NCBI GenBank assembly: GCA_034401795.1
Contig: CM067374.1
Coordinates: forward strand, 135,190,135-135,254,134
Origin: Chaetoderma sp. LZ-2023a
Taxonomy: Eukaryota > Mollusca > Caudofoveata > Chaetodermatida > Chaetodermatidae
Reading direction: 5' to 3'
Length of the DNA: 64,000 nucleotides
Every line of letters starts with the position of its first letter. Position 1 is the first letter of the stretch. The notes below the pieces were generated by a model that made no database searches, was not told the DNA's origin, and was given only the letters and a program-made list of their open reading frames with translations. The position numbers were made by a program, and so were the translations under genes. Positions 1,374-21,633 of this stretch are shown here, one piece after another.

Positions 1374-3963
1374 ATGGTCGAGGGGAGAAAGACCATCTGG
1401 CCTTCCTATATGATAACGATGGCAAGATCGAGAGGAAAGCTGGAGAAAGAAGTTCTTGCAGATGCCTCCACAGATCCCGTGTTGTGGTCGAAGCAGCAGA
1501 TCCTCTTAAAGCCAAGCGACATCGGTGTGGCTCGGAAGGACGACAAATTAAATGTGCTGCAAGGTCTTGAGAACTACATTCGTTATGGGTCTGGCTGGAC
1601 AGTCGACAAGGTTGAGGCACTGTACCTCAACATCGCTAGATATCAACCACCCAGCCTCCATCAAGGGAAAGCGTGATCATTGGCTGTGCTGGTCTCTCAG
1701 GTCTGTGAGAATCCCAACAAGCTGACAATACAAGTCGGCTGTTAAAGTACGCAAACCACTGAGACAGCCTTGACGTCTGTGCTGTGGATTCTCCTATGCC
1801 ACTCTCACAAATAAAGTGAGTTGAATCATATGTCTTCGGATATGATAAGGGTATTGATCCATTGCAGCTGAGTGAGGCTGATCTCGACATTTCTAAGACT
1901 AATCTGCTGCTTATTGAGAAGGGTGGTAAGTAACACTTTGCTTGGATAAAGAACCTGAATCGCCTGCTTTATGATCAGAGTCGGTATGAAGGGAGAAAGC
2001 ACTTCTGTGAGCGATGCCCCCATTGTTATTCCCTAGAGCACCTACTCACTCAGAACCAGCCAGAGTGTACAGGTGTGGAGATGACTAGAGAAGACTGGCG
2101 TGCTCATAAAACGATGGCCAGCTGTCATATGTGCGGCAAACCCTTAGATTGTGACGGAGTCATAGATAGTGTCTGGGACCACTGCCACATCACGGGTCTC
2201 TACCGGGGAGCATCCACAACCTGCATTGGCATGATTCTTACCTCATCATGCAGGCCATATCCGGGACCAAGGGGCCGATAAACCGTATCTCCAATAACAT
2301 GAAGAAGTACATCTCCTTCAGCCCACGCAGCCTCCGGTTTATCAACTCAGTCCAGTTCCTTATGGCATCACTTGACAATCTGGAAGCTAGGAGGACCACA
2401 ATCCCACTCACACAGCAGTATGAGCGTAGTGCTGGCGCGGATGAGCTCCTGCTTCAGAAGGGTGTGTACACATAGGAGCATATGGATGGGTGGGATTGGT
2501 TTAATGAGACCTCTCTGCCGTCACAGTCTGCCTTCTACAGTATGCTTGCTGGGGAGAGCATATCTGACAGCGACTACAGCCATGCCTAAGCTGTTTGGGT
2601 CAGGTTCGACTGTCAGACCATACTAGACTATCACGCGCTCTACCTGCTGTCTGACACTCTTCTCCTCGCAGACGTCTATGAAAACTTCCGCACAACATGT
2701 CTCAGACAATACAGTCTAGACCCAGCCCACTCCTACACTAGTCTTGGTTTGAGTTGGGATGCACTGCTCGGGAAAACAGGTATAGAACTGGAACTACTCA
2801 CCCACTATGATATGCATATCTTCGTGAAGAATAGGCTCAGAGGTGGTGTGTCAATTGTTAGCCAGCGATATATCAAGGCCAACAACCCCAACATCCCTAA
2901 GTATGATCCAATCCAACAGACAAGCCATGTTATTTACCTGAATGCTAACACTCGCTAAAGCTTGATAATGAGCCAGCACCTCCAGATTGGGTGGTTCAAG
3001 AGGGTTGCTGATTTGACGGCCTGAGAGATTATACAACTTCACAACGATGCTGACAATATCTCGTGGAGGTGGACCTGGAGTACCCGCATGAACTGCATGA
3101 CATGCACAATGCTTACACACTGGTGCTTGTGTGAAAGAATGTGAAGGAGGAGTTGCTCACTGAGTATCAGACAGCAGGAACCACAAGCCCGGAGAAACTA
3201 TTCTGAGAGACAAAGAACCCTATGTTCTCCACAACTGCAACCTAAACCTAGACCTTAGACTAGGCATGAGGTTGAAGAAGGTGAACAGTGTTCTATGCTT
3301 TAATCACTCCCCGTGGATGGAGCCCTACACAAGACTCAACACTGGGGTCCGAAAACAGGCCACCAGCGAATTCGAGAAAGATCTCTACAAGTTAAGGAAT
3401 AATGCTGTCTTTGTCAAGCTGGGCCTGTCATCCGAGAAGGACAGGCTGCGATTCATTGCCAAGACCAACTACACGCGAGTGAAGGTGTTTGATGATGACC
3501 TAGCTGCTCTACACATGTACAAGACCAGCCGCTGAACTGGAAAATGTATGTGGGTATGTCAATCCTGGACCTCTCGAAGCACATCATGTACGACTTCTAC
3601 TGCAACGAACTGAAACCGGAGTATGGTACCCGCTGTGAGCTCCTGTACATGGGCACAGGCAGCCTCCTGCTGGAGGCCCAGACAGAGGACATCTACACTG
3701 ATATGGCAGCCAGGAGCAACCTCTATGACACAAGCGCCTACCCAGTAATGCACCCGCTACACAGCAACACCAACAAGAAGGTTCAGGGCAAGATTAGAGA
3801 TGAGTATGCCGGGGTTCCTGGCGAAGAGTGTGTCGGCCTGTGCCAGAAGATGTATTCCATCACATGCTCGGATGAGCAGGAAATCAAGACGGCAATGGGG
3901 CCACCACATCTAGAACAAGACAAGCTTCACCCCCTCAGACACCAAGAGGTGGATTGCTCCTGA
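1374..3963 (+). pseudogene. Polinton/Maverick protein-primed DNA polymerase B, decayed (copy 1)
   Basis: Consecutive + strand segments in shifting frames reproduce a Polinton-type family B polymerase in order. They are an N-terminal region (1374-1676), a Cys-rich finger (about 1980-2070), a Cys/His endonuclease-VII-like patch with DHCHITGLYRG (about 2175-2215), a palm-entry segment with RGGVSIVSQRY (2749-2958), a segment with FEKDLYKLRNNAVF (3266-3535) and the palm segment starting YVGMSILDLSKH (3544-3963). The family replicates the transposon from a protein primer. At least six stops or frameshifts separate the segments. The motif A aspartate reads Asn (YLNANTR, about 2934-2955), and the motif C DTDS reads GTGS (3651-3662), so no active enzyme could be made. 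It converges with the integrase remnant on the - strand. Confidence 0.85.
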
Positions 3964-3989
3964 TGGTGTTCACACCCTAGCTTATGGTC

Positions 3990-4880
3990 ACATGAATATG
4001 GCCTCATCGAAGAGCTGCTACTCTAGGTGGTGGAAGCTGAGTATCTGGAGTGACCAGCTGAGGTTCCTCTCGCACAAATGGTTGTCTGGGGCTGCTTTCC
4101 TAGCATGTCAGGTAGTACAGTATATGCTGCCCCGGAGACTCCACATACCTGCCGAGTCTGTGGACCTCTCTCGACCAGTTTGGATCACGTGCACATCGTC
4201 GCCCACTGCCAGCTCGCCAGGCCCATATAGGTAGCCAACCAGGATATCAGATGACAGTCTGTGCTTCTCGACATTGTCTATAGGCTGGCGCACAGCTGAG
4301 TGCAGCACGGCCTCAGTTGGCCTCTACCCTATCAAGCGATTGATCTCTGTGTTGGATGCCTCTACTACATTTGGTAAGTCTCAGAGCCATACTCTGGAGC
4401 CATCGCCAGGGGTCTTGCCTCTAAACTCCTTACCATCACGCACTTTCAGCAATACTGGCTACTGGAGGGGCCTTTGTGGATCCTCATAAACACTCTGGAA
4501 CCTGGCCACTTCCTGCCCCCGTGGCCTTATCCATAAGCGATACTGCAGTCTTATACCTGCTGGCTACATCCACGATGGTGAGGGCATACTTGCAGTCATG
4601 CGGAAGGAACAGCACATCTGCCTGATGAACTCTGTTCAGAACAGGCATGCCTGCACGCAGAGGTAATAGCCACCAGGCCTGTAATAGAGTACCTCAAGAG
4701 AGGCTGTCAAGACGACTGAGATGGCGGATGAACGCTCAGATTTCATCAATGACGTCGACTACTGTTCTGTCTCACATGGCTTGGGCGAACTCTAGACAGA
4801 TAAAACAGATGGCCGTCATTCATCCGACCATTACTGAACATCTCCTCGAACACCTGGATACACTGTGATCTAATCTATGC
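3990..4880 (-). pseudogene. Polinton integrase (RVE family), decayed (copy 1)
   Basis: Reading the - strand from about 4880 down gives an integrase core that includes NRVHQADVLFLPHD, then YALTIVDVASRYKTAVSL. Its C-terminal tail, rich in YLYGPGEL, ILYYL, FVREE and DTQLPPP, reaches to about 4000. This order fits the Polinton retroviral-type integrase, which inserts the element. Stops and frame changes interrupt it, for example after VPECL near 4490 and near 4240. The second catalytic Asp and the Glu were not located with confidence. It lies tail to tail with the polymerase remnant, consistent with both belonging to one element. Confidence 0.72.
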
Positions 4881-4899
4881 AGCACTAGCACACTCAGAG

Positions 4900-6012
4900 C
4901 CTGGCAGCTTATCAACGAATCCACAAACATTAAGAGTCCTAACTAGGTAATAGAGTGACGCCATATAGCATGTCTTGAATGCTTTGCGGCCCAGATAACT
5001 GTGAGTGCTATGGCAAAATATGGAAGCTATTGGCCAGCGACTCCAAAGAATGTGCCTACCCCTGAGACAATGGCTCGAATGGTTTTGGAGACCGCAAATC
5101 CATGGAGAGTGTTGTCAGAAATCTTGGGGACTGTCTCGCTAGTCTTCGTCGTGAACAGAGGGATCGATCAGAGCTTCAACCGACACCAACGGGCCAAGGG
5201 ACCCCTTCATGTAGGTGCAATAGATCCCTTTGGCTTAGTAGATTAGCTTGCCTCATCCTCATCATAGTCCGGGTTGATGTGATCCTGAGAGGTAACACAG
5301 GAGCCATTGAGAGATACCGAAGAGTGGTTGAATGATATAGAGGTGTAGGTGAAAGACTGTCATATATAGTCTCGAAGAGAGCACGTCCATACTTCAAGCT
5401 GAAGTACAGCAACCGAGCATTGTGGGATCTCATGGGTACCCTTCTAAAAGAGGTTGAGGATCATGATCTTCATGTGCCAGATGCATCTGCTGATGTTGCT
5501 GAGGTACGTGGCTGTCCTCTTGTCTATTGCAGGATCATAGATGACTGGGACTAGTGGGCCGGGCTGATAGCAGCTTCTCTATCAGTGCCTGCAGGTTCTG
5601 TTGCTTGGTGATTGAGTTCCTGTACCATTGGGCATTGCTGTCAACCGCCTCAGCAGCTTAGTCAGACACCAGAATTATGTAGTGTTCACGCAGATGTTCT
5701 GCCAACAGAGCATGCAGCAATATATTTTTTTCATGTTCCGTAGGGGCAATGATCAGCACCAAATGCCCATCATTGGTTGGTCTACTTCTGTATGGTATGG
5801 ACATGTTCCCGGAAGAGGGTTAGCACCTGTTCTGCTATAGCCTCATCTATATCTGGGACGCTAAACGGGAGCACACCCTGTATTAGCTCTTTCATCTGCA
5901 GGGCAGGCACCATCATACTGGCGGCGGAGATGAAGGGTGCGAGGGAGGCATTGAGCATGGCATCCCAGTAACAGCTGGAAATGTAACACAGAGGGCAGTA
6001 GAGGAGAGGCAA
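4900..6012 (-). pseudogene. undeciphered Polinton-associated coding remnants
   Basis: On the - strand upstream of the integrase several protein-like stretches appear in changing frames. One is at 5782-6012 with PALQMKELIQGVLPF and DIDEAIAEQVL. One at about 5580-5760 includes LLAEHLREHYIILVSD. One at about 5440-5540 includes TATYLSNISRCIWHMK, and one is at 5176-5433. Stops break all of them. Orientation and position suggest they are part of the same decayed Polinton, but I do not recognise the proteins, and some stretches may be noncoding. Confidence 0.35.
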
Positions 6013-6235
6013 TATAGCGGTTTATTTTCGTACCTTAAAAGTAGTTGCTGCGTCAGAGCAACCAACTAATTTGTATCACTATCACCTTTTTTCCTTTGAT
6101 CTCACCACCTATTGGAAAAGGTGTGAAAAAACCCCGCTATATATCCTCCATTGTGATTGGATGCTAGATGTAGAGGGTGGCCATAAGCGCTTCCCCATCA
6201 TTAGATCACGCCCCTCATGTCATCCAATGAGGTGA
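6013..6235. other. noncoding, A/T-rich
   Basis: I see no gene here. The stretch separates the Polinton-like coding remnants from the direct-repeat block. A possible element boundary may lie here, but no terminal inverted repeat could be paired by eye. Confidence 0.4.
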
Positions 6236-6632: not shown

Positions 6633-6655
6633 AAGTTAATCGATAATCATTAGAC

Positions 6656-6664: not shown

Positions 6665-6718
6665 CAGCGTTTTAACAATCTGATCTGTTAAGAGTTAACA
6701 GTTTTGATTTTTGCTTAA

Positions 6719-7033
6719 ATGGTTTGTTCAATGTTTGTTATAAGTATAAATACAGGCCATTTTATGGATTGTGAAATGCCTGTAGCACTCGGTAACAATG
6801 TACACATACGCAATGTGAAACATAATGACAAATTTGTAGTAGACATACGCGAGTTTAGTGTTGGTAGTGTTTACCCCACCAAGGCATGTTTGTGTATGGT
6901 AATACGTTTCAAAGGCTCACTGACCCAACTCATTGTAGTGTCGGGGCAGGATCTTGGAATCTGCCATGCCCTCACGGGTAGGACGCTCGTGGTGGATATT
7001 CGTCTCTCTACCCCCACTATAACGATATGTTAG
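6719..7033 (+). CDS. small protein with PC4/Sub1-like fold signature
   Basis: This is an intact 104-residue frame. Residues about 23-65 have the order LGNNVHIRNVKHNDKFVVDI, then REF, then YPTK and a hydrophobic stretch. That resembles the PC4/p15 single-strand-DNA-binding domain of transcription coactivators (basic strand, 'VDIRE', 'PTKKG'-like turn). The resemblance is by eye and the usual final helix is poor. A TATA box precedes the ATG by 55 bp. The 3' part belongs to a repeat with a second, decayed copy at 28.57 kb, where the ORF start is not recognisable. It is probably a mobile-element gene rather than a host gene; a chance frame cannot be excluded. Confidence 0.45.
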   Translation: MVCSMFVISINTGHFMDCEMPVALGNNVHIRNVKHNDKFVVDIREFSVGSVYPTKACLCMVIRFKGSLTQLIVVSGQDLGICHALTGRTLVVDIRLSTPTITIC

Positions 7034-8208
7034 TCATTAAATTTGCTTGTGTAAAATGTAGCCAGCATCCGGTGGTGTTTTATGTGGTTACGGAGCAGGG
7101 TCTCCAGATTCTCACCCAATTTGGATATGTTGCGAAGTAACATGTACACTTGCTATCCATTGAGGTAGATGATTTCCAAAGTAACCTATGGGTAGTTGGG
7201 CGTCTGCGCCCGTGGATGGCCATATCTAATGATAGGTAGGAATATCTGTCACTTGCGGCCAAAACTAGTTCTTGTTTCTAACACCTAAATGGTAGGTTAG
7301 GAATAGCAGAAGGCCCGCATAAATAAAAGCGGCACCTACCAAAACAGTATCTTAGAATAACAGGGACTTGTGAGTCCTTCGGGAGTCGCTTTCCTGTTTT
7401 CACGTAAACCAGTATGCATCACGTTAATTATATTTTCACTAGGATGGTCTATTTCCCTAGCAGTTTGTTGAACAAAAGACTGGCCCTTTTCTCCAGCTCT
7501 TTTCCTCCGCTTCGGCGTCAAAGGCATTGTTCTGTGATGGAGGCCCGCGTGAGGCACTTGGCTCTCACATAAGCGAGATGTCCTGGACGGAGGCCCATGA
7601 GAGACTACTACCTCTCGCACCATGAGGAGATCATCTAGGTGACGGAGGCGTGTGTTAGGCACTTCCCTCCCGCAACATCAGGAATCTCTTTAACTGTATA
7701 ATAATGGTATAATAGCTTATATTAAGTTAAACAGTGACCTCGTTGTGTGGATGCTTTCATTGCAGAGATACCTCTGCAGATTTATGAATCCGTTTGGTAC
7801 CTCCGGCGACCCCACGTGCAAAGTACACCAGCCAGCTCTACTTTATGTATTATTATTATATGCTCAATTCTGTTAGACGATCTACCTTGTTTGATAAATA
7901 GTTACCTCTTTTTCTATATAACTTATTCTCCATAGTCTTAAATTAACATGGAAAGACATACCGATGACACCAAAAGCTGGGATGATACCAAGCAGTTCAA
8001 TCTCAGTGGCAATGGTCGCAGGGCCCTAGCAGAATGATTGAGTTCCACCATCCTTAGGAGCTGGTCTATGTACTTCATGGAGCAATGCCACATGGGATCA
8101 AGAACCCCGAGACTCGGAGCTGGCCAGCCCCCTCGTTCATCGTGCACATGTGGTGCGACGATTGATCAATTAATGCCGGAATGACCCAACAGAACCCCGC
8201 GAGCTACA
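6950..8208 (+). repeat. repeat 'R', copy 1
   Basis: About 1.2 kb aligns by eye with 28570-29681 in the same order. Shared anchors include CACGCCCTCACGGG, ATGTTAGT(C/G)AT(T/C)AAATTTGCTTGT, a GAGGC(A/T)CCCGCGT-type block, the 'gatgcg/gatgct...ATACCTCT' block, an ATG followed by GAAAGACATACC or GAGAGGCATACC, and the common end CCCCGCGAGCTACA. Both copies hold decayed coding sequence, such as a frame starting MERHT at 7948. The unit belongs to no family I recognise. Confidence 0.75.
7028..7138 (+). CDS. 36-residue ORF conserved between R copies
   Basis: The ATG lies at the end of the PC4-like frame and overlaps it by a few bases. The frame begins MLVIKFACVKCSQ, with a CxxC pair, and ends at TAA 7136-7138. 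In copy 2 (about 28670) the first eight codons are retained before an indel, which hints at past coding. It may instead be a downstream exon or a continuation of the PC4-like protein through the TAG at 7031. Confidence 0.3.
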
Positions 8209-9041
<833 letters not shown>

Positions 9042-9105
9042 ATAATAGTGGTTGCACAGTAACGTCATTATATATATAATGACGTTACTGTGCAACCACT
9101 ATTAT
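9042..9105. repeat. 64-bp perfect palindrome
   Basis: The two arms, each about 32 bp and containing TAGTGGTTGCACAGTAACGT, meet at an AT centre near 9073/9074. No mismatch is visible over about 31 bp per arm. Confidence 0.95.
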
Positions 9106-9110
9106 CGATT

Positions 9111-9290
9111 ATGGAAAATCTGAATATTTTGTCTCAATCGGGTGGGCCCCATGGCCTGAACTAATGGTCAAAATGGGGCCATTATGTAATCCGTATATAT
9201 ATATATACGGATTACATAATGGCTCCATTTTGACCATTAGTTCAGGCCATGGGGCCCACCCGATTTAGACAAAATATTCAGATTTTCCAT
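9111..9290. mobile_element. 180-bp near-perfect palindrome (foldback/MITE)
   Basis: Two 90-bp arms meet at a TATATA centre at about 9200/9201. The outer ends are ATGGAAAATCTGAATATTTT and its complement. Only about three mismatches are visible (for example CTCAA against TTAGA near the ends, and GGGGCC against GGCTCC). Such a young, nearly perfect inverted repeat suggests a recent foldback element or inverted duplication. Confidence 0.93.
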
Positions 9291-9584: not shown

Positions 9585-10110
9585 TTACTTGGTGGCGATC
9601 ATTTCCACATGGTTACTTAGGGAAACATTAAGTGTTCTACCCATATAACCTACATTATTAGCTGTCTTATTATCCATATGTCCCACTGTATCCTTAACCC
9701 ATAATGCAGTAGTTAACTGACTCGACCTAACCTCTGTCGAATAATTAAATAAGCTTTCAAAATAACTGCGAAAAGTGTACATGTCATTAGCGTCAGAGAC
9801 ATGTTTACCTTTTAAAAATACATCTACTTGAGAAAACATAAAGCCAACCCATATGCTAACTGCACAACATCGCTGTTCGCTGTTGAAGGAGGGTCCACCC
9901 CCGCAACAACTTGTACAATGCTAGCCTTAACGTAAATGTAACTTTGAGCTAAATCTATGTATTCATCACTGCTTCCAGTGACGAAAAACTCCAGACTTCC
10001 CCCAGAGTTAGACAGACGTAATTTTGCCAATGCGCTTGATCCATCATAGCCATTACATGGTTCACAGCAAATAAATCTAATTCACTTTCAGTGCAGTGAC
10101 AAGCAGCCAT
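9585..10110 (-). pseudogene. Polinton major capsid protein (double jelly-roll type), 5' part only
   Basis: The - strand ATG at 10108-10110 opens a start MAACHCTESELDLFAV that fits the N-terminus of the Polinton capsid family seen in many invertebrate genomes. After a frame break the next pieces read SGGSLEFFVTGSSDEYIDL (9824-10030). The piece MFSQVDVFLKG onward follows (9585-9839) and contains SQLTTALWVKDT and GHMDN. Only about 170 residues of a normally much longer protein remain. The 3' part is lost near the TAA microsatellite and palindromes. The protein would form the hexon-like shell of the virus-like particle. It is the last gene of the - strand morphogenesis block. Confidence 0.8.
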
Positions 10111-10136: not shown

Positions 10137-10560
10137 TTGCTTAGCATTTCTGATGCTTCTCTTTCTACGGTTATGCCTCAAATCACTTCTGCAAGCAAAT
10201 CGTTGAACCCTATCTTAGCATTTTTGGATCTAGGTTGTGAATTAGCTCCCAAGATATTATTACGAGCTAACCCTATGGCATTTGGTATTATCGCTCCACC
10301 AACATTCAAAACCCTATTTTTCACACATGTTTTCCATTTTTTACCAGCTAAAACATTTTCAGCCACTCCTAAACCAGCTGACAGGGCTCACTTACACAAA
10401 CTTTTTCCAACACTTTTAGCTAATGGCATGGCTGCTCTGAACCATGAACCTATAATATTTCTTGGTCCATGGCCCTTTTGACTCCTAAACGTCCACCAGC
10501 TTGATTAGCATAATAATCTCTCGCATAGCTGCATCTGGTTTACAAGCATAAGTCATTTTT
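10137..10560 (-). pseudogene. Polinton small minor-capsid/pVI-like protein, frameshifted
   Basis: Reading - from about 10530, YYANQAGG-type and RLGVKRGHGPRNIIGSWF-type stretches in adjacent frames are followed by FRAAMPLAKSVGKSL. They continue as LGVAENVLAGKKWKTCVKN down to 10178. The Gly-rich start, amphipathic 'MPL-KSVGK' helix and basic tail fit the small protein that sits next to the capsid gene in invertebrate Polintons and is compared with adenovirus pVI/pX. A stop (CK*A) and at least one indel break it. The functional assignment is an inference from family position. Confidence 0.62.
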
Positions 10561-10619: not shown

Positions 10620-11515
10620 TTCCTATATCTTAGGTCTAAAATGCAAACAAAGTACCTTTGGTGATGCACCGTCTTCAAATGTTCTCTCCAGTCCTATCAC
10701 TTATAACCACGCCTATCGTGTCAATATAATTCGTAGATACGGTTCTATATTGAATGTCAGGAAATGTCTTCTCCGCCATGACTGCTAGATAATGGCATAA
10801 CTCCTAACAGAGGAGCCGTAGCATCTCCGACTACATTATGGCTTGCAATATTGCAATATACATAAGCCGTAGTTAATGTAATTTTATTACCTTTACGTGT
10901 TGATAGAACTCTACCAGCCGGGGTAGGGCCACTAATGATATGATCGGTATAGCCTACGTATTTACCGATGCAAGCGTCGAATTCAAGAGCGAACATTCGC
11001 TTAATGTTTAATGTTACGAAGTTGATTCGATCCATGAAATAGCTGAATCCAATGGTATTTTTATAACGTTTGTGGCTATTAATCTGCTTATTTATAAACT
11101 CTATTAGAATTTTAATGGTATGGAAGCCTTTACGTATTTCTATTTGTTGCATGTAAAGAGGAAATTCTGCAGTTTTACGTCAAGACTCTGAATTCACTGG
11201 CTCTACTAGTAAATTATTAATCTGGATAAATTTATCAAAAATCTCATTGATAGTGTTCAGAGCGCTTTTTTGTTTCTTCTGCTTCTGCTTAGGTTGAACG
11301 TTAGCTTTCAAGGGTTCATAAGAATGTAGCAGGATCGTCAACGGCTTCACTAATGTTAACCAACTTCTCGGATACAAAATGGATGACAAGCCGACTTCCC
11401 GTTCCCCATAGAATCGTAAAGGCATTTGAAGATGCGTTCTGAATTCTGAAATCTTATTATCAGGATAGTAATCCATGCTACTGTTACTCGGTAGCATAAT
11501 ATAAAACTGCTCCAT
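10620..11515 (-). pseudogene. Polinton penton-like minor capsid protein (single jelly-roll type), broken
   Basis: The likely start is the ATG at 11513-11515, giving MEQFYIMLPSNSSMDYYPDN and then LSSILYPRSWL. A second segment (10757-11152) includes RKGFHTIKIL, TTAYVYCNIASHNVVGDATA and PLLGVMP. A third, in another frame, has YIDTIGVVISDRTGENI (about 10680-10740). The order matches the penton-base-like family of invertebrate Polintons. Several frame breaks separate the pieces. A TATA box lies just upstream, and the adjacent Tc1 insertion falls outside the coding region. Confidence 0.75.
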
Positions 11516-11560
11516 GTTTCTAGCTATTCTTTCTAAACCGTCAATCACTCAACTTCGGGT

Positions 11561-11569: not shown

Positions 11570-11589
11570 CTCGGCACTGGTAATATATA

Positions 11590-13246
11590 CACCTGTGCAA
11601 AAGTTAAGCACCAGCAAAAACAATAGAACGTAGAAACATGATGGTACAACTAGGCTGCCATACTTTTTGTCCCCGCGTTAGCTGACATAATTCCAAGTAC
11701 GAAATGCACATGCATGCATGACTTCACGCCGCTTGATGTCCGTGCGTGGCGGGAAACAGCACACGTGTTCAGTTATGTAAAAGTCCAGTTTGAGGTGTAG
11801 AACATTACATACAGATTTAGGCGACAAGATTAGGAATTTTGTGTTCATGACCGTGGTTTATTTGTACAGAGAGAATTAGCTCTTGATTGTGAACCGCTAT
11901 GGCAAGACGAAGGTTAAGTGATCGTGTGAAATGGCAAATCATAGGCATGCATACCACTGGTATGTCATGCAGATAGATTGGCAGACAGCTGAACATTAAC
12001 CAGACTGTAATCAGTCGTTTGATTGCAAAACATGGGCAAACTAACGAGGTGAAGGACAGGCCTAGATCTGGAAGACCGAAGAAGACTACTGCCCGTGATG
12101 ATCGAGCCCTAGTACGCTTTGTTAGGAGATCTCCATTCACCAACAGCAGAGTGCTCAGCCAGCAATGGGAAACGCGCAATAGAGTGTCAATGTCTATCGT
12201 CAAAAGGAGACTGTATGCTGCTGGCATGAAAGCTAGGAGACCTGTCAGACGTCCTCTCCTCACTGCACACCACAAAGAGGAGCGTCTGAGGTGATGCAAC
12301 GAAAGAAGACACTGGAATATGAGATCCTGGAGACGGGTACACTGGTCCGATGAAAGTCGGTTCCTGCTTCATGCCACAGATGGTCGAACTCGTGTATGGA
12401 GGTCCAGACGCACGGCGTACGACCAACGTAACATCATGGAAGAAGTTCCATTTGGTGGAGGTTCCGTTATGATATGGGGGTGCATCTCATTTGATTGTAA
12501 GCTGGATCTGTTGACTGTACCTGGAACACTAAATGGACAAAGATATCAAGATTCCATACTGGATAGAGTTGTGGTCCCTCATTTTGTAAATCATGCACCT
12601 GGAACCCACCCTATATTCATGGATGACAACGCCCGACCACATCGTGCTAGAGCTGTGCATGAATACCTCCGCCAGAATGCCATCGAAACCCTACCATGGC
12701 CAGCAAGGAGCCCTGACATGAACCCTATTGAGCATATCTGGGACATTCTGGGAAACATGGTGAGAAGGAGGGATCCTCCTGTGCAGAACCTACAGGAATT
12801 AACAGACGCACTCCATCTTGAATGGCAACGAATACCACAATGGCGTATCGGTCGGTTGGTGACCAGCATGAGACGTCGTGTCCAGGCCGTCATCCAGGCA
12901 CAAGGTGGATATACCCGGTATTAATAATGACAGTCTCAAACTCGTGCACAGATGTTAAACTTCGTTTTCAGACACCATTAATGACAATCTAGCCACGTGT
13001 GTCAACTGTAGGGCAATACTTGTCAGTTGTGTCAACGTAACCATATTCAGGCCTCGTTTTCAAGTTCAAACAAAAACATACAGTGTTTCCCCACCATCAT
13101 AATCAGCATTCCTCTAGTTGCATTATTACCTCTTGCACTAAGATGGATGGGTACATACATGTTTATGCTATTGCTTTCTTCATAGCACATGAATATACCC
13201 CCGCATGTACGTAAAAATAGGGTGGTGCTTAACTTTTGCACAGGTG
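11590..13246 (+). mobile_element. Tc1/mariner-family transposon, nearly complete
   Basis: 24-bp perfect terminal inverted repeats are visible: CACCTGTGCAAAAGTTAAGC... at 11590-11613 and its complement at 13223-13246. Both are flanked by TA-rich sequence (TATATA on each side), as expected for TA target-site duplication. The element is about 1.66 kb and carries one transposase gene. It interrupts the second Polinton remnant between the penton-like gene and the integrase, so it inserted later. Confidence 0.93.
11899..12924 (+). pseudogene. Tc1 transposase with two premature stops
   Basis: From ATG 11899 (MARRRLSDRVKWQIIGMHTT) the frame runs to TAA 12922-12924, about 341 codons, the usual Tc1 length. 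The order is an N-terminal paired helix-turn-helix region with a GRPKKTT linker (about 12070-12095), then the DD34E catalytic core. The core has Asp in VHWSDESRF (about 12345), Asp in FMDDNARPH (about 12620) and Glu in DMNPIEHIWD (about 12725), with 34 residues between the last two. Two in-frame stops, TAG near 11968-11975 and TGA at 12292-12294, are the only breaks seen; no frameshift was found. The protein would cut and paste the element at TA sites. Confidence 0.92.
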
Positions 13247-13655
13247 TATATATCCCAAACACCCTAAGACGCTAATGCTATCCAAACCCCTTTATCTCCA
13301 TTTTGAATGGTCAGATGTATTACATATGTTACTATTATAACATAAATAATTATAACCTGGCGAGATATTTTATCTCGTCTCTGGGTACATTTGCACTACA
13401 AAGTAACCAACAATAATCATTATTACATAGTTCTGGACTGTTTCGAGACATTTCGACAATGTGTCAACGTTAAGGTAGGGGTGTGGCGAGTAGGTGGTGG
13501 ATGGGTAGGATTGTACCTGTAGCTCTGTAATGATTCTAATTACGGTTATGTTCTGAAAAACTTATCCACGAATTGAACGAATTAGGATAGCCATGCTATT
13601 TGACATATACTTCTCGCTTATTATCTTTCATACACCTATTAATAATTCTTTCTAC
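13247..13655. other. noncoding flank of Tc1 within the Polinton remnant
   Basis: No open frame of note. It contains A/T-rich sequence and a G-rich stretch (TAGGTGGTGGATGGGTAGG). It probably belongs to the Polinton region between integrase and penton gene. Confidence 0.4.
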
Positions 13656-14700
13656 TCAATACAGCTGACTATTAGCTTTGTTTAAACGAAATTTCTGCAA
13701 CTCTTCGGAATAAAATGTACCGATAATGGGATTTTGATTATAATCATTGAGCTTATATACACCCGATCTGTGAGATAGTTTTGAACTCATTTTGAATATC
13801 ACATTGCTCCATGTCAGTCTATAACCCTTGGTAAATGGATCTTTTAACTCTGACACTCTTACGTCATTGCCTACGCTCAAATCACTTGGCTTTACCGATG
13901 CTCTTGGATTTGCTTTCGAGTACATATTATGCCAAGCTAACACCTCTGTACTGTGGTCAACATCTACAGGTTTCATTTTTGTACTACTGTGTACAGCTTT
14001 ATTGTAAGATCGTACCAGATTAGGGAGTGTGTCGATATATTTATCGGTATTTTTGTAAGTCATATATTTCCATAACTTAGTCTATATAGTGTGTTGAACG
14101 CATTCAGCGATCGCAGCCTTCGTGAGAGAGTTCTAAGCTGTTTAGAAATGTACACCTTTAGATGTTAATATGTGTCTAATGGTAGCATCCACGAAGTCAC
14201 CCCCTTTATCGCTCTGAATCAATTTGGATCTTCTAGAGACAGTATTCAGAATAAACTCCAATGCTTGAGCTAAGGTTTTCGCAGTTTTATTCGTTAAAGG
14301 AATTATCCACACACATTTTGATAGACAATCTATTATGAATAGTAGTTAATGCATAGAGTTATTATGTCTGGCTAAACTAGTAACGTCGCTCAGATCCATT
14401 TGCCATAACTTATCAACACTGGTTACATTGAATCGATCGCTCTTAAATTGTATTCACCTAGGTCTATGCAAAGTGTACGTAGCTTACTCCGCTAACCAGG
14501 CTCGTATTAAGAATTCAGATATTGTTCCCTTAAAGGCCCTATACAGTTTTTCCAAACCGCCAAAAGACGCAGAGTGTTTGCTATCATAACATACACACTT
14601 CAATCTGTCAATTACGCTAGTAGATCGCTTATTTCTTACGGTTCTTGCAAGCTTTTTTTCACCATAGTTTAACCAAGTTTTGGACAGCTTAGCATCTCAA
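13656..14700 (-). pseudogene. Polinton integrase (RVE family), copy 2, stops but catalytic triad retained
   Basis: Reading - from about 14700, an N-terminal region with SASFGGLEKLYRAFKG precedes the core. The core contains DKLWQMDLSD (first Asp, about 14395), IIDCLSKCVWIIPL, then IQSDKGGDF (second Asp, about 14205) and AAIAECVQ (Glu, about 14110). An intact frame of 135 residues (13656-14063) finishes the protein with LPNLVRSYNKAVHSST, a chromo-like C-terminal part and GTFYSEELQKF. About five stops lie between 14700 and 14063. The family inserts Polintons. A related remnant lies on + at 58.8 kb, sharing PIIGTFYSEELQK. Confidence 0.85.
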
Positions 14701-14802: not shown

Positions 14803-15159
14803 TCACTCTAGACTCACTGCGTTGAAGGTTCTGCGGTTGTCTAATAATAAGCCTGGTGCCCTATGATTTAAGATTTCGATTAATCTCTTGCCTTTATTTC
14901 TTAAGCTAGGGCTCAACGATTGAACTAACTCTTTAATTCTAGCATTATCCAAATTTAAACCCCTAGGCACTGAAGTCTGGAGATTCCACCAACGTTCCAA
15001 ATCATCTGACGACTTAAGCACTGAACCAAATTGCTTACGCTGATATATCTTGAGTCTAAACTTTTGAAGCATCTGAGAATACAAATTTGACTTTTTTCTA
15101 GCCGTCAAGTCGCTATGATTTAGAATTTGTTCCATCTCTTGATCTAAATTCACAGCCAC
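14803..15159 (-). CDS. conserved Polinton protein of unknown function (coiled, basic)
   Basis: This is an uninterrupted 118-residue frame, MAVNLDQEMEQILNHSDL..., with alternating acidic and basic helices. A C-terminal LLDNRRTFNAV stretch follows a 'KGKRLIEIL' helix. Proteins of this layout (helical N-terminus about 'EMEQIL...LYSQML', then a compact C-terminal domain) recur beside the integrase in invertebrate Polintons; this is recollection of layout, not a search. No function is known to me. It may still be only part of a longer gene, because these proteins are often longer. Confidence 0.5.
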   Translation of the reverse strand: MAVNLDQEMEQILNHSDLTARKKSNLYSQMLQKFRLKIYQRKQFGSVLKSSDDLERWWNLQTSVPRGLNLDNARIKELVQSLSPSLRNKGKRLIEILNHRAPGLLLDNRRTFNAVSLE

Positions 15160-15280
15160 TCTAAGGTTTTGATCACTATTTAGAATATAGTAATCTTAGA
15201 CGTCGTGTTTATACCATCTATCATATTATGCTGTACCAACGCCATTTTATAAACGCTTTCCATCGCTATTATTGTTATTA

Positions 15281-15643
15281 TTATCCGAATAATTTAGAAA
15301 TAAGCAGTAATACTGCTGGAAGTATAAGGTGTAAGAAACTCCCTCGTTGAATAACTCGTTGTCTTTCAGATAATGGCGTCTTGCTTTTACTGAGCAATCT
15401 AATGTTATCACGGTATCTACATAAGTGTTTATGTTGTATTCGATTTAATTTTATGTTTCCACGAATTAGGTTTAAACAGCATTCGGACACAGCATCGGCT
15501 AAATCCTTATTACAATGTTCTAGAATTATCTTGCATTGCTTGGGTTTGGCTTTAACTAAACTCTGTAAGAGTGGTAATTGATTTGAGATAATGACAGCTC
15601 TACGTCCTCTTTTAAACTTAGACCCGGATCTAACCGTACACAT
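15281..15643 (-). CDS. small basic Polinton protein with hydrophobic C-terminus
   Basis: An intact 120-residue frame. The pattern LPLLQSLVKAKPKQCKIIL, then LADAVSECCLNLIRGN, a basic RYRDNIRLLSKSKTPLSERQ stretch, GSFLHLILPAVLLLISKL and a final Gly fits a small protein common in Polintons and related animal elements. It typically lies upstream of the packaging or integrase genes. The basic centre suggests nucleic-acid binding, and the terminal hydrophobic helix suggests membrane or capsid contact; both are inferences. It lies between the ATPase and the 118-residue protein, all on -. Confidence 0.6.
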   Translation of the reverse strand: MCTVRSGSKFKRGRRAVIISNQLPLLQSLVKAKPKQCKIILEHCNKDLADAVSECCLNLIRGNIKLNRIQHKHLCRYRDNIRLLSKSKTPLSERQRVIQRGSFLHLILPAVLLLISKLFG

Positions 15644-15655
15644 AGCCTGTCAACG

Positions 15656-15656
15656 C

Positions 15657-15779: not shown

Positions 15780-16371
15780 ACAAACTTGGGTCGGTAAAAT
15801 ATTGGTGCATAATCTGGTGTTCAGGTGTTGCCTGACAGAGGTCTATGGGTAAATAACCGTGAGCTCACGTAATGGCATCGCTATATGAATCATGCAATGT
15901 CGTGCTATGTCGAGGATACATTTGACGAGCCAATGTACTTATATTGGATGCGTCTCTAGGATTCTTAAATAGGATTATGTAATGATAATTCAGCGAAATA
16001 TTTCTGTGGTGCTTATTTTTTTAGAAAACATTCTGAAGCAAATGAATTATCATTGAATTCTCGTGATGCCCTCATCTCGTAAACAATGTAGTAACCCTGC
16101 TATCTACGTCCTCCATCAGATCATCAAGGATAATTAGATTAGCTATGTTGGAATCTATTTCTAAATCTTGAACTCCTGAATATATCTCTACATCCGTGCC
16201 GAGCCTCTCATAACCACGTTGATATGACCTGTAACATAATATAATTCGTTGAGGTGTTTTATCGAATAGTTGAGCTCTGTATCTAATTATTTTGCTTAAT
16301 AGTATGGATTTACCTGCTTGAAACGGTCCGCTAACTAATATATTATTCAGATGTTTAACTTGTGTATACAT
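15780..16371 (-). pseudogene. Polinton FtsK/HerA-type packaging ATPase, 3' part broken
   Basis: The first 99 codons (16072-16371) are open. They hold a Walker A GPFQAGKSILLSKII (P-loop GxxxxGKS, about residues 15-22) and a Walker B LIILDDLM. Downstream on -, after a stop and frame changes, FKNPRDASNISTLARQMYPR and a HGYLPIDL-type C-terminal region continue to about 15780. This is the A32-like ATPase that would pump the element's DNA into capsids. It is the first gene of the - strand morphogenesis block. The P-loop residues look intact, but the C-terminal half is frameshifted. Confidence 0.82.
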
Positions 16372-16442
16372 TTTGTCGTGTTGTTTTACAAAGCTTGAAG
16401 AGCACTAGAGCATCAACTCCGAGCATGCCACGCATCACCATC

Positions 16443-16643
16443 CTATCTGTGATGCCCATTCCCTTGTACAGTATTGGCCTTGTTGATGGCCCCTTGTCCT
16501 AGTGTGTCAGAGTTTCCAACAAGGTATCTGGCCAGTATGGTACCTTGGATCTCCCGTGGCTCGCCATTTTCATCGAAATCTAGGAAGGAGATGGGAGCAA
16601 GAGTGGCATCTGAACCAAAGCGTGCCTCGCCCAAGTGTGCCAA
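16443..16643 (-). CDS. hypothetical protein fragment
   Basis: A 66-residue frame with FLDFDENGEPREIQGTILAR, which reads like genuine protein but is not recognised. It has the same orientation as the genes at 16.8-20.1 kb and may be part of the same element. It ends at a stop near 16443. Confidence 0.3.
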   Translation of the reverse strand: MAHLGEARFGSDATLAPISFLDFDENGEPREIQGTILARYLVGNSDTLGQGAINKANTVQGNGHHR

Positions 16644-16837
16644 GTCTCAAAGCTCGTTGCTTTCTATGTCTGTGAGTGATAGAGACAGAGCGAAGGGCAG
16701 GGGGGGGGGGAGGTCGTATATAGAACTATACATAACAGCTTAAATTTAGTCATATCTCCAGTGAAACAGGTTGGCATAGGTAGACCACACAGAGGATGTG
16801 CCAGTCTCCCATCTCTGTGTTACTATCCAGATGCTAC

Positions 16838-17314
16838 TCACTCCGATTGAGTCGTTATCTTGGTGGGGAGTGCAGGAAGATGCCTCCTTTTGAGATGCCT
16901 CCTTTTGTGTTTGCCATTGATTGAAGCGGTCGTATATGACCTTCTTCTGCTCTTTGGTGAGGAACTTCTTCCAGGCAACAGTACCCTCAACAGGAGGCGG
17001 GCCTCAACACTGTCCATCTTGGCCACACATTCTTCGGCAGCCAGGATATCCTTGACTTCGTCGCTATCGCTTGCTAACTCAGTATGAAACTTGGCGTCAG
17101 TTTCCCACATGGCATGGCAGAACAACATACTGTTCTTCACACCCCCTCCCTTTGCTGACGCTCTGACAGTCGTCCCGCAGGTGCATACCACATGCTTTGT
17201 CCTGTTGCTAGATACGATGTTGAGGACTTCGAGGATGGACTCGAAGACTGGTTGCAGGCTAGATGTGACTATTTTGTCTATGGACTGAGCAAGTTCATTA
17301 TGATGGGCTGTCAT
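16838..17314 (-). pseudogene. hypothetical Polinton-block gene, frameshifted near its 3' end
   Basis: I choose the ATG at 17312-17314 (MTAHHNELAQSIDKIVT) because TATATAA lies about 17 bp upstream on the - strand. The frame has a helical N-terminus, a single CTC motif (VVCTCGTT), then an acidic segment (SDSDEVKDILAAEE). Near 16990 the coherent reading jumps frame to FLTKEQKKVIYDRFNQWQ. That suggests an indel, with the 3' end in another frame. The family is unknown to me. Confidence 0.45.
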
Positions 17315-17330
17315 TGTGTGTGGTTCTGGT

Positions 17331-17337
17331 TTATATA
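17331..17337 (-). promoter_or_regulatory. TATA-like box
   Basis: TATATAA on the - strand, immediately upstream of the chosen start at 17314. The same arrangement is seen before the penton-like gene and before the membrane-protein gene at 20080. Confidence 0.4.
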
Positions 17338-17428
17338 GATATCTTAAACTTGGTGGCATCTAGTCAGACATATGCCATGATGATCTCGGCCATAGCACTC
17401 GTTGCTAACCGTAGAGCGGTGGCTTCCC

Positions 17429-17680: not shown

Positions 17681-17850
17681 CGACGTCGTCGTTTAAGCGC
17701 TGAGTATACAATAAGGTTAGATCTGTCCAGGCTGCGTCTGCTAGCTGCCTAGATAGGTACTCGAAAACATCCTTCTCTCTATATTACCGCGATAGAAATA
17801 ATGTAAACATGGTCCAGCTCGCGAGGTACTGTGACGTCTTCTGCACATAG

Positions 17851-18120: not shown

Positions 18121-18506
18121 CTGGACAAAGACCGCTACTGAACCATCTCGCCCTTGGCTGTTTTGCTGGTGGCGTGTATAGGAGCAGCCACGCTAGTTCA
18201 AGTGATCTCACCCACAGTGAGCCTCTAACTGAACTACATGGGGCAGAGAAGTCTGGAGACCAGCAAAGCAATAGGTAGGCGTACCACCACTAGGACGATC
18301 CTCCCAATGCGCTTGCTCTGCAGTACTCTGTGTGATTCCAGAGGAGCAGTTGTGGGCACCAGCACAGGTGGTCATGCTGATGGTGGTGTAGTGCTGGCTT
18401 ATGGGGCCCACAGAGATGCTGGTTGTGTGTGACATGGCACTACGCGCAGGCGAGTTGATGTCTGTGTTGAAGCGAAAGTGGACACCGGGGGAATTCCCCT
18501 CAACTA

Positions 18507-19480
18507 TCATGTTTTATAGTTCCTGACCACCAGGACTTCGGTATTCATGGTCATGTTGCTCGGAATCATCTCTAGGTGTGGCGATATGACAAAATTGAGC
18601 TGCCGACGGGCTTTCTGCAAGGCTTGCTGGAACTTGGCAATGAAGCTTCTAGGGTCTGAAACGTTGATCATGTCCTCAAAGAGACTGCTGAACATGACCT
18701 GCACCTCTTTTAAGCTCACCCCATCTATAGAGTGTCGCAGCATGGTCCGACCTGTTAGGAAACAATAACATAATGCGAAGATCTGTTGGTTCGAACGATC
18801 CATGCTGGTGTGAGCCCTGAGGTTGTATGTGGGACAAAGTACTTCCAATCATCTGTGTGGTCCTGATTGATGCTAGTGATGTGCATATTCTTCACCAGTG
18901 CATCGGACCCTATATCTAAGTCAAATGAGAACATCACAGTCTTATGACAGCCAATTCATGGTGATTGATAGGGTAAGCCTGAGTAGTCTCGTCTCTGGTC
19001 GGCGTATATAATGCCTAGACAGCTGTTGTCTCCACCATGGAAATGATAGTCTGAGTGGGCGCTTAATTCTCGCGGAAGTCTACTGGCCGCTGAGAGGCTG
19101 TAGCAGTTGGGCTCCGAGTCGAAGTCATTCATATCATGGGAGTGAAGCAAACTGGCGCCGATTCCACAACCTGGGGTGGCAGCCCAGACGACAAAGTTCA
19201 GCTGTTGCATCCAGAACGAGAGAGGTGTGAGCTTTCCTTGCATCCTTGATGATGACTGTGTGGTTGGTCAGTGGTCGTGGATTGATGGAAATGCTGATGC
19301 GATCATCTCATCGAGTATGATGGAGATCGGTGTTAGGTCTGGCACATCATCCAGTGGGACCACGTTGTTTGTCAGTCTAGAGTGTATCAAGGAAGGCAGG
19401 TTGGCTCTGGATGATCATCGTGAGATTCACTGGGAAGGCCATCTATAGACGTCATCATAAAACAGGAAATTATTTGACAT
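18507..19480 (-). pseudogene. Polinton major capsid protein, second clade, decayed
   Basis: ATG at 19478-19480 opens MSNNFLFYDDVYRWPSQ. The same frame then continues through three TGA stops as far as 18956, including TPLSFWMQQLNFVVWAATPG, and after that jumps frame. 18755-18937 contains DDWKYFVPHTTSGLTPAWI, and 18507-18848 contains QQIFALCYCF and QALQKARRQLNFVIS...NMTMNTEVLVV. This order matches a second Polinton capsid type seen in cnidarian and other invertebrate genomes, clearly different from the capsid at 9.6-10.1 kb. The identification is from memory of the family and by eye. Confidence 0.68.
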
Positions 19481-19604
19481 CGTAGAGACTCACGATGTGG
19501 TCATACAACGGTATCTCGTTTTTTAGCTCATCCACGTCCACACACCCACTGGAGCCCTTGAGGAATTGCTAGCGCACTTTGAGTTTCTCCGTGTAGTACA
19601 GGGT

Positions 19605-20080
19605 TTATAGATTCAGCATATGGTGGTACGCTTCATCACTGATCTGTCCGTCCTCGAGAGCTTTACGGACAGATTCGGCGATGGCCCATATGGCACGCTG
19701 TGCCAGTGTCACATACTTAGCATGGTTCTCTAGCTTCTTAGTGGTCTGGCACTGTCCAACTGCAAAGGCAGTAGCCAGGACAGTGGCCGTAATGGTCAAT
19801 CCAGCCAGCGGGATAGCAACTATTCTACACACACCTGTAGCGAGAGTAGCAGTGGCTGATACACCAGCACTGGCTCCGATCACCCCCAGCAGCTGAGGTT
19901 GTGCGCGCAAGATGGTCGCAGGCCCTTTTATATCGTTATAATAAACTGCTGCCTCGTGGATAAGATTCTGCCTGATAGTGTCGATCTGCTGTAGTCGCCA
20001 GCCGTGAACTGTACCACCCTCATCGGGTGCCAAGGAGGGGGTTTTTTCAGGTTGCTTTCGCCACCCTGGTTTTTAACCAT
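19605..20080 (-). pseudogene. small Polinton membrane protein (two hydrophobic helices), one indel
   Basis: The likely original start is ATG 20078-20080 (MVKNQGGESNLKK), eleven bases or less downstream of a TATATATATA run on -. An indel in an A/C run near 20040 shifts the frame. From 20033 the frame is open for 142 codons: a helix (LQQIDTIRQNLIHEAA), then two long hydrophobic segments (about residues 48-90), then a helix ending GQISDEAYHHMLNL. A protein with a coiled start, two membrane helices and an 'ISDEEF'-like end is frequent in Polintons; its function is unknown. Confidence 0.6.
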
Positions 20081-20511
20081 GGTATATATATAGGACTTAA
20101 ACTCGAGCTAGTTCTGCATCACCGTTAGGATCTGCCGATGGGCCATCGTGGGATTCATCTAGGCTAACCTAACGAAGCGAGTGAGCTTATTGGTGTGGCT
20201 CCATACCTCACTTTGGCACTCCTGGTCCGGCTTGTAACATTTGGAGCTTCATTTTGTCCCTTTGTTAGTACTCCCGACGTTGTGAGGCCTTCATCATCCA
20301 TTCTTGGGTAATATTCTTTAGATTTATAGTCTCCTTGTCATTCTGGCGTTCTGTTGATAACACCGCTCCTGCTATAGTCACTCATCTTCTTGTCGAAAAA
20401 ACATTTCCTGTAGGTTTATCTGTACCACCTCAGAGAAGGTGTGTGGGTGAGTTGGCTGTTCTATCTCCTTTTTCAACAGTTCAGCAAAGGTCATATATAT
20501 CTGGTATGATA

Positions 20512-20838
20512 TCATGTTGATAGGTCAATGAGTAGCAGCATCGTAAATTCTAAATGGGCATCCAACCACCCACATGTGCTGGCATACAGGGTAATGGTCG
20601 AGGTGTCTACCAGGTGGTCTGTGGGCGTGAAGAGTTTGGGACTGATTGCTTTCCACATGATGCTGTTCGCGCTCGGCAGATATTCTATCACGTCTAACAC
20701 CCTGTGATAAGCACTGCCTGGAGATGGATGTAGCACATTGGCATGTATGTATGGGGTGGAACGACGAACCAACACGAAGAGGACCCATTCTACACGGTAC
20801 TGTACCACCCATCTAACCACCAGAGATGGCTTGATCAC
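20512..20838 (-). CDS. hypothetical protein, unknown family
   Basis: A 108-residue frame with a hydrophobic N-terminus (VVRWVVQYRVEWVLFVLV) and a Leu/Thr-rich remainder. An overlapping frame is also open, so coding is uncertain. It lies in the Polinton-like block on the common - orientation, and its 5' end faces a + strand gene starting near 20.9 kb (divergent pair). Confidence 0.3.
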   Translation of the reverse strand: MIKPSLVVRWVVQYRVEWVLFVLVRRSTPYIHANVLHPSPGSAYHRVLDVIEYLPSANSIMWKAISPKLFTPTDHLVDTSTITLYASTCGWLDAHLEFTMLLLIDLST

Positions 20839-20895
20839 GTTCTCACCACCTCAGAGCATCAGTCGGCTATATGCTACGCTTAAACACAATATATA

Positions 20896-21633
20896 AGATG
20901 GAGCCAATATTTTCTCACTAGACAGGTCTTGCTGATCACGTGGATGTGTACGATGTTGATGCTGCCAAGGTTAAGGAAAGCGACGGCAAGTCGTTCACCC
21001 TACTACGCCCTCCAAAACGTTCTCTCAACATCAGTGTTGATGGTGTATAACTATTGACTGACCTAAAGGATGTCTCCAAGGAGCGTCTGGTCGAGACATG
21101 GATGGCAGCAAGTTCGTGCTTCGCTACGATTTCCAGAAGAAGTGATACATTCTCGAGCCTCTGATTGAGGTATCTGAGACGAAGCTGGCAGACATCGACG
21201 CCCTGGATGCTGACCTCAGCTTCCGGCTGGTCACCGTAACTGTGAACCATGGCCCACCGATGACAAATCAAGATCTACTGTTGACCATGGTAAATTATCT
21301 ACAGATTATGTTCGGGAAGATTGAAGTATGGTATCACGCTGGCCCTGGAGGCAAGTGGCAACCATAGCTTCCGCTATGTATGTCCCAGCAGTTATTGACC
21401 ATCGAGTCACCACGCTCCCTACTGTTGTGAAAAAGGATGGCACTGTCCGAAAGCTTTATAACCGCGGGCCATCTTTCCTGACCTATATAGGGCAGGATGG
21501 CACAACCCTAGTCGCGATGGGTCATAGAGTTAGGGTCCTGGAGGAAGGCTCCTGCTGCGGCGCCCCTTTGATGGGCCAGAGGATGTTATTAATATTCAGG
21601 AGGCCATATTATTTTATTAATTATTTTAAATAA
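20896..21633 (+). pseudogene. hypothetical + strand gene, broken
   Basis: From about 20896 a + frame reads HVDVYDVDAAKVKESDGKSF, then LLRPPKRSLNISVDGV, a stop, and LLTDLKDVSKERLVETWM. It shifts frame near 21100 to YDFQKK, a stop and EPLIEVSETKLADIDALD..., and ends near FGKIEVWYHAGPGG at about 21355. A further open stretch (21379-21570) may continue it. The text is clearly protein-like with sparse breaks, but I recognise no family. It is divergent from the - strand genes and close to where the MITE cluster begins. Confidence 0.5.

What the first reader, a model, noticed from the sequence alone, without database searches (positions are those of the whole stretch)
1374..21633. Three Polinton blocks of at least two clades, possibly nested
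Capsid genes of two distinct Polinton types (9.6-10.1 kb and 18.5-19.5 kb), two integrases and a polymerase lie within 20 kb. The 16.4-21.6 kb block lacks polymerase and integrase, while the 1.4-6.0 kb block lacks a capsid; together they would make one element with the 6-16.4 kb material inserted into it. Nested insertion of one virus-like transposon into another is inference; the order and gene content are read directly.
Basis: partly seen in the sequence, partly recalled or inferred. Interest (0 to 1): 0.75.

Follow-up and report, generated by a model that had tools for sequence, protein, structure and literature searches.

The report
Cluster of decayed Polinton transposon fragments
This stretch of what is probably an animal genome holds broken remains of several virus-like transposons (Polintons); one piece lies between two others that look alike in composition, but it is not proven that those two were once a single element that the middle piece split.

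Summary
The block structure is real. 1.33-6.0 kb (A) and 16.4-21.6 kb (C) share base composition (GC 0.496, 0.493) and dinucleotide signature; 8.8-16.4 kb (B) is AT-rich and distinct. A is a decayed pPolB (shown for 2081-3906, +) tail-to-tail with an integrase (-). B holds a second integrase, an ATPase-like piece and presumed capsid pieces, all (-), and is perhaps younger. Capsid identity in B and C rests on gene order and recall; no search confirmed it. Nesting is possible but unproven: no terminal inverted repeats, no duplication above chance, B breaks off in its presumed capsid gene (9.58 kb) and at its ATPase start (16.4 kb), and much of 6.0-9.5 kb is other repeats. A different PolB fragment at 61.2-64 kb has the same signature, so it marks a class, not one element. 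In the one relative with the same PolB-integrase pair, the ATPase and most other genes lie on the polymerase's other side, so 6.0 kb could be A's own end. Best reading: a Polinton graveyard (0.52); strict nesting 0.38. The window's assembly could not be reached, so the deciding test was not run.

The parts
2081..3906 (+). Block A: decayed pPolB; at least four frame changes and one stop between the matched pieces; 1330-2080 may be its upstream part but shows no similarity
   Evidence: tblastn of separate stop-to-stop pieces against L001 pPolB, collinear; shuffle z 7.2, 47.4, 22.3, 39.8 for the four pieces tested from 1934 on, 0.1 for 1329-1676
4108..4693 (-). Block A: decayed integrase, tail-to-tail with the polymerase
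   Evidence: rve E 0.022 for 4484-4693, z 3.3-4.8 against the L002 integrase; 4108-4323 z 2.2-2.3 against it and 3.6-4.1 against block B's 13656-14081; same tail-to-tail arrangement in L001
4875..6003 (.). Rest of block A, identity unknown
   Evidence: no Pfam hit for 5782-6021; over 3966-6003 no ORF excess on -, but 719 aa of ORFs of 60 aa or more on + against 359 in shuffles, 0 of 200 reaching it
6006..6148 (.). imperfect fold-back (62% self-complementary)
   Evidence: sequence
6719..7033 (+). ORF with weak PC4-like match
   Evidence: PF02229 E 0.0081, 16.1 bits, below cut-off 25
6925..8208 (+). repeat of unknown class; second copy at 28569-29682
   Evidence: 66.9-76.2% DNA identity in three pieces
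9008..9290 (.). two adjoining fold-backs (MITE-like)
   Evidence: 9111-9290 98%, 9008-9134 80% self-complementary
9585..10081 (-). Block B: presumed start of a major capsid protein gene, breaking off at 9585
   Evidence: gene order and recall only. Piece search found nothing; z 0.5 or less against L002's presumed capsid protein
10178..10387 (-). Block B: presumed PW-like piece
   Evidence: position between the presumed minor and major capsid genes; no Pfam hit
10757..11548 (-). Block B: presumed minor capsid (penton) gene, one stop
   Evidence: gene order and recall only; family scores below cut-off, PDB E 0.94; model of 10757-11179 pLDDT 41, unusable
11583..13253 (+). Tc1/mariner insertion inside block B, 31-bp perfect inverted ends
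   Evidence: DDE_3 E 7.7e-12 for 12295-12924
13656..14696 (-). Block B: integrase (13656-14345 shown; 14484-14696 taken as its N-terminal piece by recall)
   Evidence: rve 1.9e-6 for 14142-14345; z 7.1-9.1 and 6.4-7.1; 14484-14696 z 1.3-1.5, not significant
14803..15649 (-). Block B: two small ORFs (130 and 122 aa) between ATPase-like piece and integrase
   Evidence: no family above cut-off; ORF excess over 13640-15650
16072..16404 (-). Block B: start of an ATPase-like ORF with Walker A motif
   Evidence: Walker A at 16329 (one of two matches in 1270-23100, the other at 4434 in the A integrase region); FtsK 0.098, AAA_14 0.06; z 1.1 against L002 ATPase, not significant
16443..17359 (-). Block C: decayed ORFs of unknown product, next to the B/C junction
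   Evidence: ORF excess on - over 16400-19300 (z 3.2 for ORFs of 100 aa or more, 1 of 200 shuffles reaching it), none on + at that length
18208..19267 (-).
   Evidence: searches found nothing
19605..20072 (-). Block C: ORF with one environmental relative
   Evidence: P0001, jgi, 96 aa, E 2.6e-13, 56% identity over 43% of the query; 1 of 258 candidates
20512..21274 (-). Block C: two further decayed ORFs; block ends at about 21582
52658..53070 (-). Related fragment: A-type pPolB piece
   Evidence: 60.6% and 66.4% DNA identity to 2231-2510 and 2572-2702
58760..59537 (+). Related fragment: B-type integrase
   Evidence: 62% DNA identity to 13692-14467; z up to 27
61200..64000 (+). Related fragment: pPolB of another kind, running off the window
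   Evidence: 31% identity over 102 aa to L001 pPolB, z 10.7; DNA_pol_B_2 E 0.032, below cut-off. Only 63392-63901 is shown; the pieces before it gave no match

Best explanation
A graveyard of Polinton fragments. Polintons of at least two lineages inserted here at different times, each by its own integrase, then lost ends and genes through deletion, point mutation and insertion of smaller transposons. A and C are GC-rich remains; B is an AT-rich, probably younger remnant that lost its polymerase side (right) and capsid/protease side (left) and later took up a Tc1/mariner. A and C need not be the two halves of one element. Shown: blocks, polymerase and integrase identity, composition classes, mariner. 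Inferred: capsid identity, relative age, separate insertions.
For: Block steps (right junction 16392, support 16367-16428, log-likelihood gain 69.4). Polymerase and integrases. Age sign: CpG observed/expected A 0.46, C 0.57, B gene stretches 0.77-1.03. Three more Polinton fragments in the same 64 kb, so separate fragments are common here. B stops inside its presumed capsid gene and at the ATPase start, so it is not an element with ends. In the relative L002 the order is end repeats, a 245-aa ORF, integrase, polymerase, then ATPase (Pox_A32 E 5.6e-11) and a presumed capsid gene: by that order A would end near 6.0-6.4 kb and its other genes would lie left of the window.
Against: A and C are closer in dinucleotide signature (43) than the halves of A (63) or of C (64) are to each other, though halves are shorter and so noisier, and closer than any of 48 overlapping 5-kb windows of the rest to A (121 or more) or to C (82 or more); they have complementary gene content and lie 10 kb apart. 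L002 is one distant relative, held for 12,243 of 17,398 bases, its capsid gene presumed by eye (no Pfam hit). Vertebrate Mavericks have another order (PMC8097293, section 7). Against B being younger: the raw share of codons in ORFs of 100 aa or more is highest in the A polymerase (836 of 878, overlapping frames counted), not in B (373 of 658, 393 of 670); B leads only relative to its own shuffles; and ordinary stretches of the window also have CpG ratios of 0.54-1.03.
Confidence: 0.52

Rival explanations
1. Strict nesting: A and C are the two parts of one GC-rich Polinton, and a B-bearing stretch of DNA was inserted into it at 6.0/16.4 kb, later eroded and joined by smaller transposons.
For: Same GC and dinucleotide signature of A and C; complementary content; C ORFs and A integrase on the same strand; sharp junction at 16.39 kb; B perhaps younger by CpG.
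Against: No inverted repeats between the edges (local score 10 against 11.9 +- 1.9 in 300 shuffles; no blastn hit between 5400-9400 and 15200-17400). The best shared strings at the edges are a 5-mer TAGAG, which 325 of 400 random pairs of places also have, and 11-base matches with two mismatches, which 54 of 400 have; no exact 6-mer. B shows no ends; much of 6.0-9.5 kb is other repeats; the left edge is poorly placed (support 5648-6246); the signature is shared with the 61.2-64 kb PolB fragment (53 to A, 72 to C); L002 gene order puts ATPase and most other genes on the other side of the polymerase.
Confidence: 0.38
2. One rearranged or chimeric element: A, B and C were brought together by recombination or inversion between Polintons rather than by insertion.
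For: Abrupt joins without TIRs; B lies on the same strand as C.
Against: Sharp differences of composition between B and A/C speak for different origins or ages.
Confidence: 0.07
3. The blocks are ordinary variation of base composition with chance ORFs.
For: Weak family scores for many pieces.
Against: PolB match E 2.8e-33, integrase z 7.1-9.1, ORF excess reached in 0 of 200 shuffles for A polymerase and both B stretches.
Confidence: 0.03

Closest known systems
Vertebrate Mavericks/Polintons (PMC8097293: passages, and section 7)
   Same: Integrase, presumed minor capsid, PW-like and major capsid pieces in B follow the order of the second Maverick module; the paper calls the vast majority of elements mutationally degraded, with no discernible TIRs in 2,166
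   Different: Here the ATPase-like piece, small ORFs and the second module lie on one strand (the paper reports that for Xenopus tropicalis only); no TIR, no 6-bp duplication, no protease or polymerase seen in B
IMGVR_UViG_3300028392_002905 (L001/L002), a 17.4-kb Polinton-like viral contig
   Same: pPolB of the same kind as A (41.6-45.7% identity in the three longest pieces) with integrase tail-to-tail
   Different: Long open frames; ATPase and presumed capsid gene beyond the polymerase start; that presumed capsid protein shows no similarity to B or C pieces
Polinton-like viruses with nested retrotransposons (PMC12220804: passages)
   Same: Nested inserts there were identified from local GC deviations and retrotransposon genes
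   Different: There the inserts are retrotransposons; here a Polinton fragment is the candidate insert

Membership tests
Polinton/Maverick (block A) | protein-primed family B polymerase | tested here: met
   similarity to the L001 polymerase; that L001's is protein-primed is inferred from its kind, its Pfam scan gave no polymerase model at E 0.01
Polinton/Maverick (block A) | retroviral-type (rve) integrase | tested here: met
   weak: rve 0.022, z 3.3-4.8
Polinton/Maverick (block B) | rve integrase | tested here: met
Polinton/Maverick (block B) | packaging ATPase | tested here: inconclusive
   Walker A only; family scores weak
Polinton/Maverick (block B) | double jelly-roll major and single jelly-roll minor capsid proteins | tested here: inconclusive
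   no homologue or usable model
Polinton/Maverick (block C) | capsid module | tested here: inconclusive
   only 19605-20072 has a relative, named hypothetical protein
Polinton/Maverick (insert at 6.0-16.4 kb) | terminal inverted repeats | tested here: not met
Polinton/Maverick (insert at 6.0-16.4 kb) | 6-bp target duplication | tested here: not met
   no exact 6-mer; other matches not above chance
Nested insertion (A+C as one element) | uninterrupted copy or empty site elsewhere | not testable with these tools
   window's assembly unreachable in 16 of 16 tries,
Nested insertion (A+C as one element) | matching inverted repeats at the outer ends of A and C | not testable with these tools
   A's left end lies beyond the window; no match of 20800-23300 to 1270-4000
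Tc1/mariner (11583-13253) | DDE transposase and inverted ends | tested here: met

The most novel reading that the evidence does not exclude
One Polinton was inserted into another of a different lineage, and the layers (GC-rich outer element, younger AT-rich Polinton, youngest mariner) record the order of invasions in one animal locus.
Probability: 0.38. Interest if true: 0.5.

Novelty: new member of a known kind. Interest (0 to 1): 0.35.

Why it matters
If nesting were shown, the locus would give the relative age of two Polinton lineages in one host and show that one such virus-like element can land in and silence another. As it stands it documents five Polinton fragments, six if C is one, of two composition classes in 64 kb, for which an order of arrival can be proposed and tested.

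Tried and rejected
Inverted repeats between the edges of the blocks and a target duplication: none above chance (one search listed only the 25 longest of 189 inverted pairs, all of them local). Homologues of the presumed capsid pieces: none. Scans of viral contigs with window pieces (22, 1 and 1 pattern matches, no relative) and with degenerate motifs (0 matches); one motif gave L001, and L001's integrase gave the same contig again, longer. A scan of prokaryote genomes gave one match in a bacterial assembly, judged chance and not followed. PDB searches with two B pieces and the L001 polymerase: nothing of note. Structure models without alignment: mean pLDDT 41 and 36, not used. I considered that a C gene might run on from 16.4 kb into 6.0 kb on the minus strand; 3966-6003 (-) shows no ORF excess, so it is not claimed.
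Full report
Block structure. Binary segmentation of GC from 1330 to 23100 gives 1330-6010 at 0.496, 6010-8480 at 0.442, an AT-rich microsatellite stretch 8480-8820 at 0.188, 8820-16400 at 0.386, 16400-21580 at 0.493 and 0.384 beyond. Refitted one by one, the right junction is sharp (best 16392, two-unit support 16367-16428, gain 69.4), as is the end of C (21582, support 21562-21610, gain 29.7), while the left one is blurred (best 6010, support 5648-6246, gain 9.6). I.33-6.0 kb A, the Polinton-like part of the middle B, and 16.4-21.6 kb C.

Block A. Separate stop-to-stop pieces match, in order and on one strand, about residues 536-1212 (computed from the hit coordinates) of a 1286-residue polymerase in L001, a public 17.4-kb viral contig: 34% over 50, 54% over 37, 44.5% over 119, 60% over 25, 45.7% over 70 and 41.6% over 125 residues. 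The pieces change frame at least four times, with one stop between two of them. The ORF at 1329-1676 shows nothing (z 0.1), so the polymerase is shown for 2081-3906 only. An integrase piece at 4484-4693 (-) is weak in Pfam (rve 0.022) but scores z 3.3-4.8 against L002's integrase; polymerase and integrase lie tail-to-tail as in L001. A second piece, 4108-4323, scores z 2.2-2.3 against L002 and 3.6-4.1 against B's integrase, so the A and B integrases may be distant kin; their remnants overlap too little to say how distant. The rest, to 6.0 kb, is unidentified; over 3966-6003 there is no ORF excess on the minus strand and some on the plus strand.

The middle. 6925-8208 is a repeat with a second copy at 28569-29682; an ORF that overlaps its start has a weak PC4 match. 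8.5-9.5 kb holds microsatellites and fold-back DNA. Block B runs from 9585 to 16404, all on the minus strand: an ATPase-like ORF start with a Walker A motif, two small ORFs, an integrase (rve 1.9e-6; z 7.1-9.1 and 6.4-7.1), a Tc1/mariner with perfect 31-bp ends, and pieces that I take, from order and recall, for minor capsid, PW and the start of a major capsid gene. Integrase, minor capsid, PW, major capsid is the order of the second module of vertebrate Mavericks (PMC8097293, section 7). No search supports the capsid identity directly, and the ATPase is not significant against L002's (z 1.1).

Block C. Minus-strand ORF excess is modest: for ORFs of 100 aa or more z 3.2 and 3.6 in its two parts, 1 of 200 shuffles reaching the value in each; for 60 aa or more z 2.7 (0 of 200) and 0.6 (55 of 200). 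One ORF, 19605-20072, has one environmental relative among 258 candidates; its two Pfam scores are below cut-off and were not followed.

Are A and C one element? Their dinucleotide distance (43) is smaller than between the halves of A (63) or of C (64), which are shorter and so noisier; 48 overlapping windows of 5 kb from the rest of the sequence, satellite stretches left out, lie at 121 or more from A and 82 or more from C; B lies at 168 and 132. But the PolB fragment at 61.2-64 kb lies at 53 from A and 72 from C, while it is a different polymerase (31% to L001; z 4.4 to the A piece 2590-2958). So the signature marks a class of GC-rich Polinton remains in this genome, not a single element. 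No TIR and no exact 6-base duplication; the best shared 5-mer is met in 325 of 400 random pairs of places, and an 11-base match with two mismatches, of which the edges have three overlapping ones, in 54 of 400. In L002 the order from the end is tandem repeats, a 245-aa ORF (RING-like by eye), integrase, polymerase, a 151-aa ORF, ATPase, a 589-aa ORF and a presumed capsid gene; if A followed it, A would end near 6.0-6.4 kb and its other genes would lie left of the window. One distant relative, not held to its far end, is thin evidence, and vertebrate Mavericks differ.

Relative age. CpG observed/expected is 0.46 in A, 0.57 in C (0.48 and 0.67 in its halves) and 0.77-1.03 in the B gene stretches. 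ORF excess relative to shuffles is largest in B (z 12.6 and 17.8, against 8.5 for the A polymerase), but the raw share of codons in ORFs of 100 aa or more is largest in the A polymerase (836 of 878, overlapping frames counted; B 373 of 658 and 393 of 670; C 490 of 967 and 379 of 760). So B being younger rests mainly on CpG, which base composition confounds: other stretches of the window range from 0.54 to 1.03. The mariner inside B has identical ends and, by position, came after B.

Other fragments: an A-type polymerase piece at 52658-53070 (-), a B-type integrase at 58760-59537 (+), and the other polymerase at 61.2-64 kb (+), of which 63392-63901 is shown.

Literature. Ten papers hold both Polinton and nested insertion; the passages read in one (PMC12220804) tell of retrotransposons nested in Polinton-like viruses, found by GC shift. 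In the listings (20 of 41 listed; none; 10 of 13 listed) I saw no title or abstract start on one Polinton inside another; that is no proof that none is in print. PMC4028283, PMC10294476 and PMC10328495 were seen in passages only, PMC11071308 in abstract and passages, PMC8547959 in search listings only.

Verdict. A real cluster of Polinton fragments of at least two kinds; nesting possible, not shown.

Noticed in passing
window 61200-64000 (+): A further pPolB fragment of a kind different from that in block A, running off the window's end.
   Followed up: partly
window 58760-59537 (+): Integrase fragment close to that of block B.
   Followed up: partly
window 52658-53070 (-): Second A-type polymerase fragment.
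   Followed up: partly
window 6150-8480 and 57700-60300: These two stretches have nearly the same dinucleotide signature (distance 33) and GC (0.445, 0.448); the second holds a B-type integrase, so the first may be another Polinton part. Unexplained.
   Followed up: no
window 11583-13253: Tc1/mariner copy with perfect 31-bp inverted ends inside block B.
   Followed up: yes
window 9008-9290: Two adjoining palindromes (80% and 98% self-complementary), MITE-like.
   Followed up: partly
window 6925-8208 and 28569-29682: Unclassified repeat in two copies, with a weak PC4-like ORF overlapping the start of the first.
   Followed up: partly
window 32781-35238 and 37052-38532: Two satellite arrays (units 42/133 bp and 24 bp).
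   Followed up: no
window 1-1269: A (CA)n-type array of 1.27 kb at the very start of the window, next to block A.
   Followed up: no
window 41943-43076 (-): Open 377-aa frame of a rhodopsin-type GPCR (7tm_1 E 3e-09).
   Followed up: no
L002 1-250: 58-bp tandem repeats at the end of the Polinton-like viral contig.
   Followed up: no
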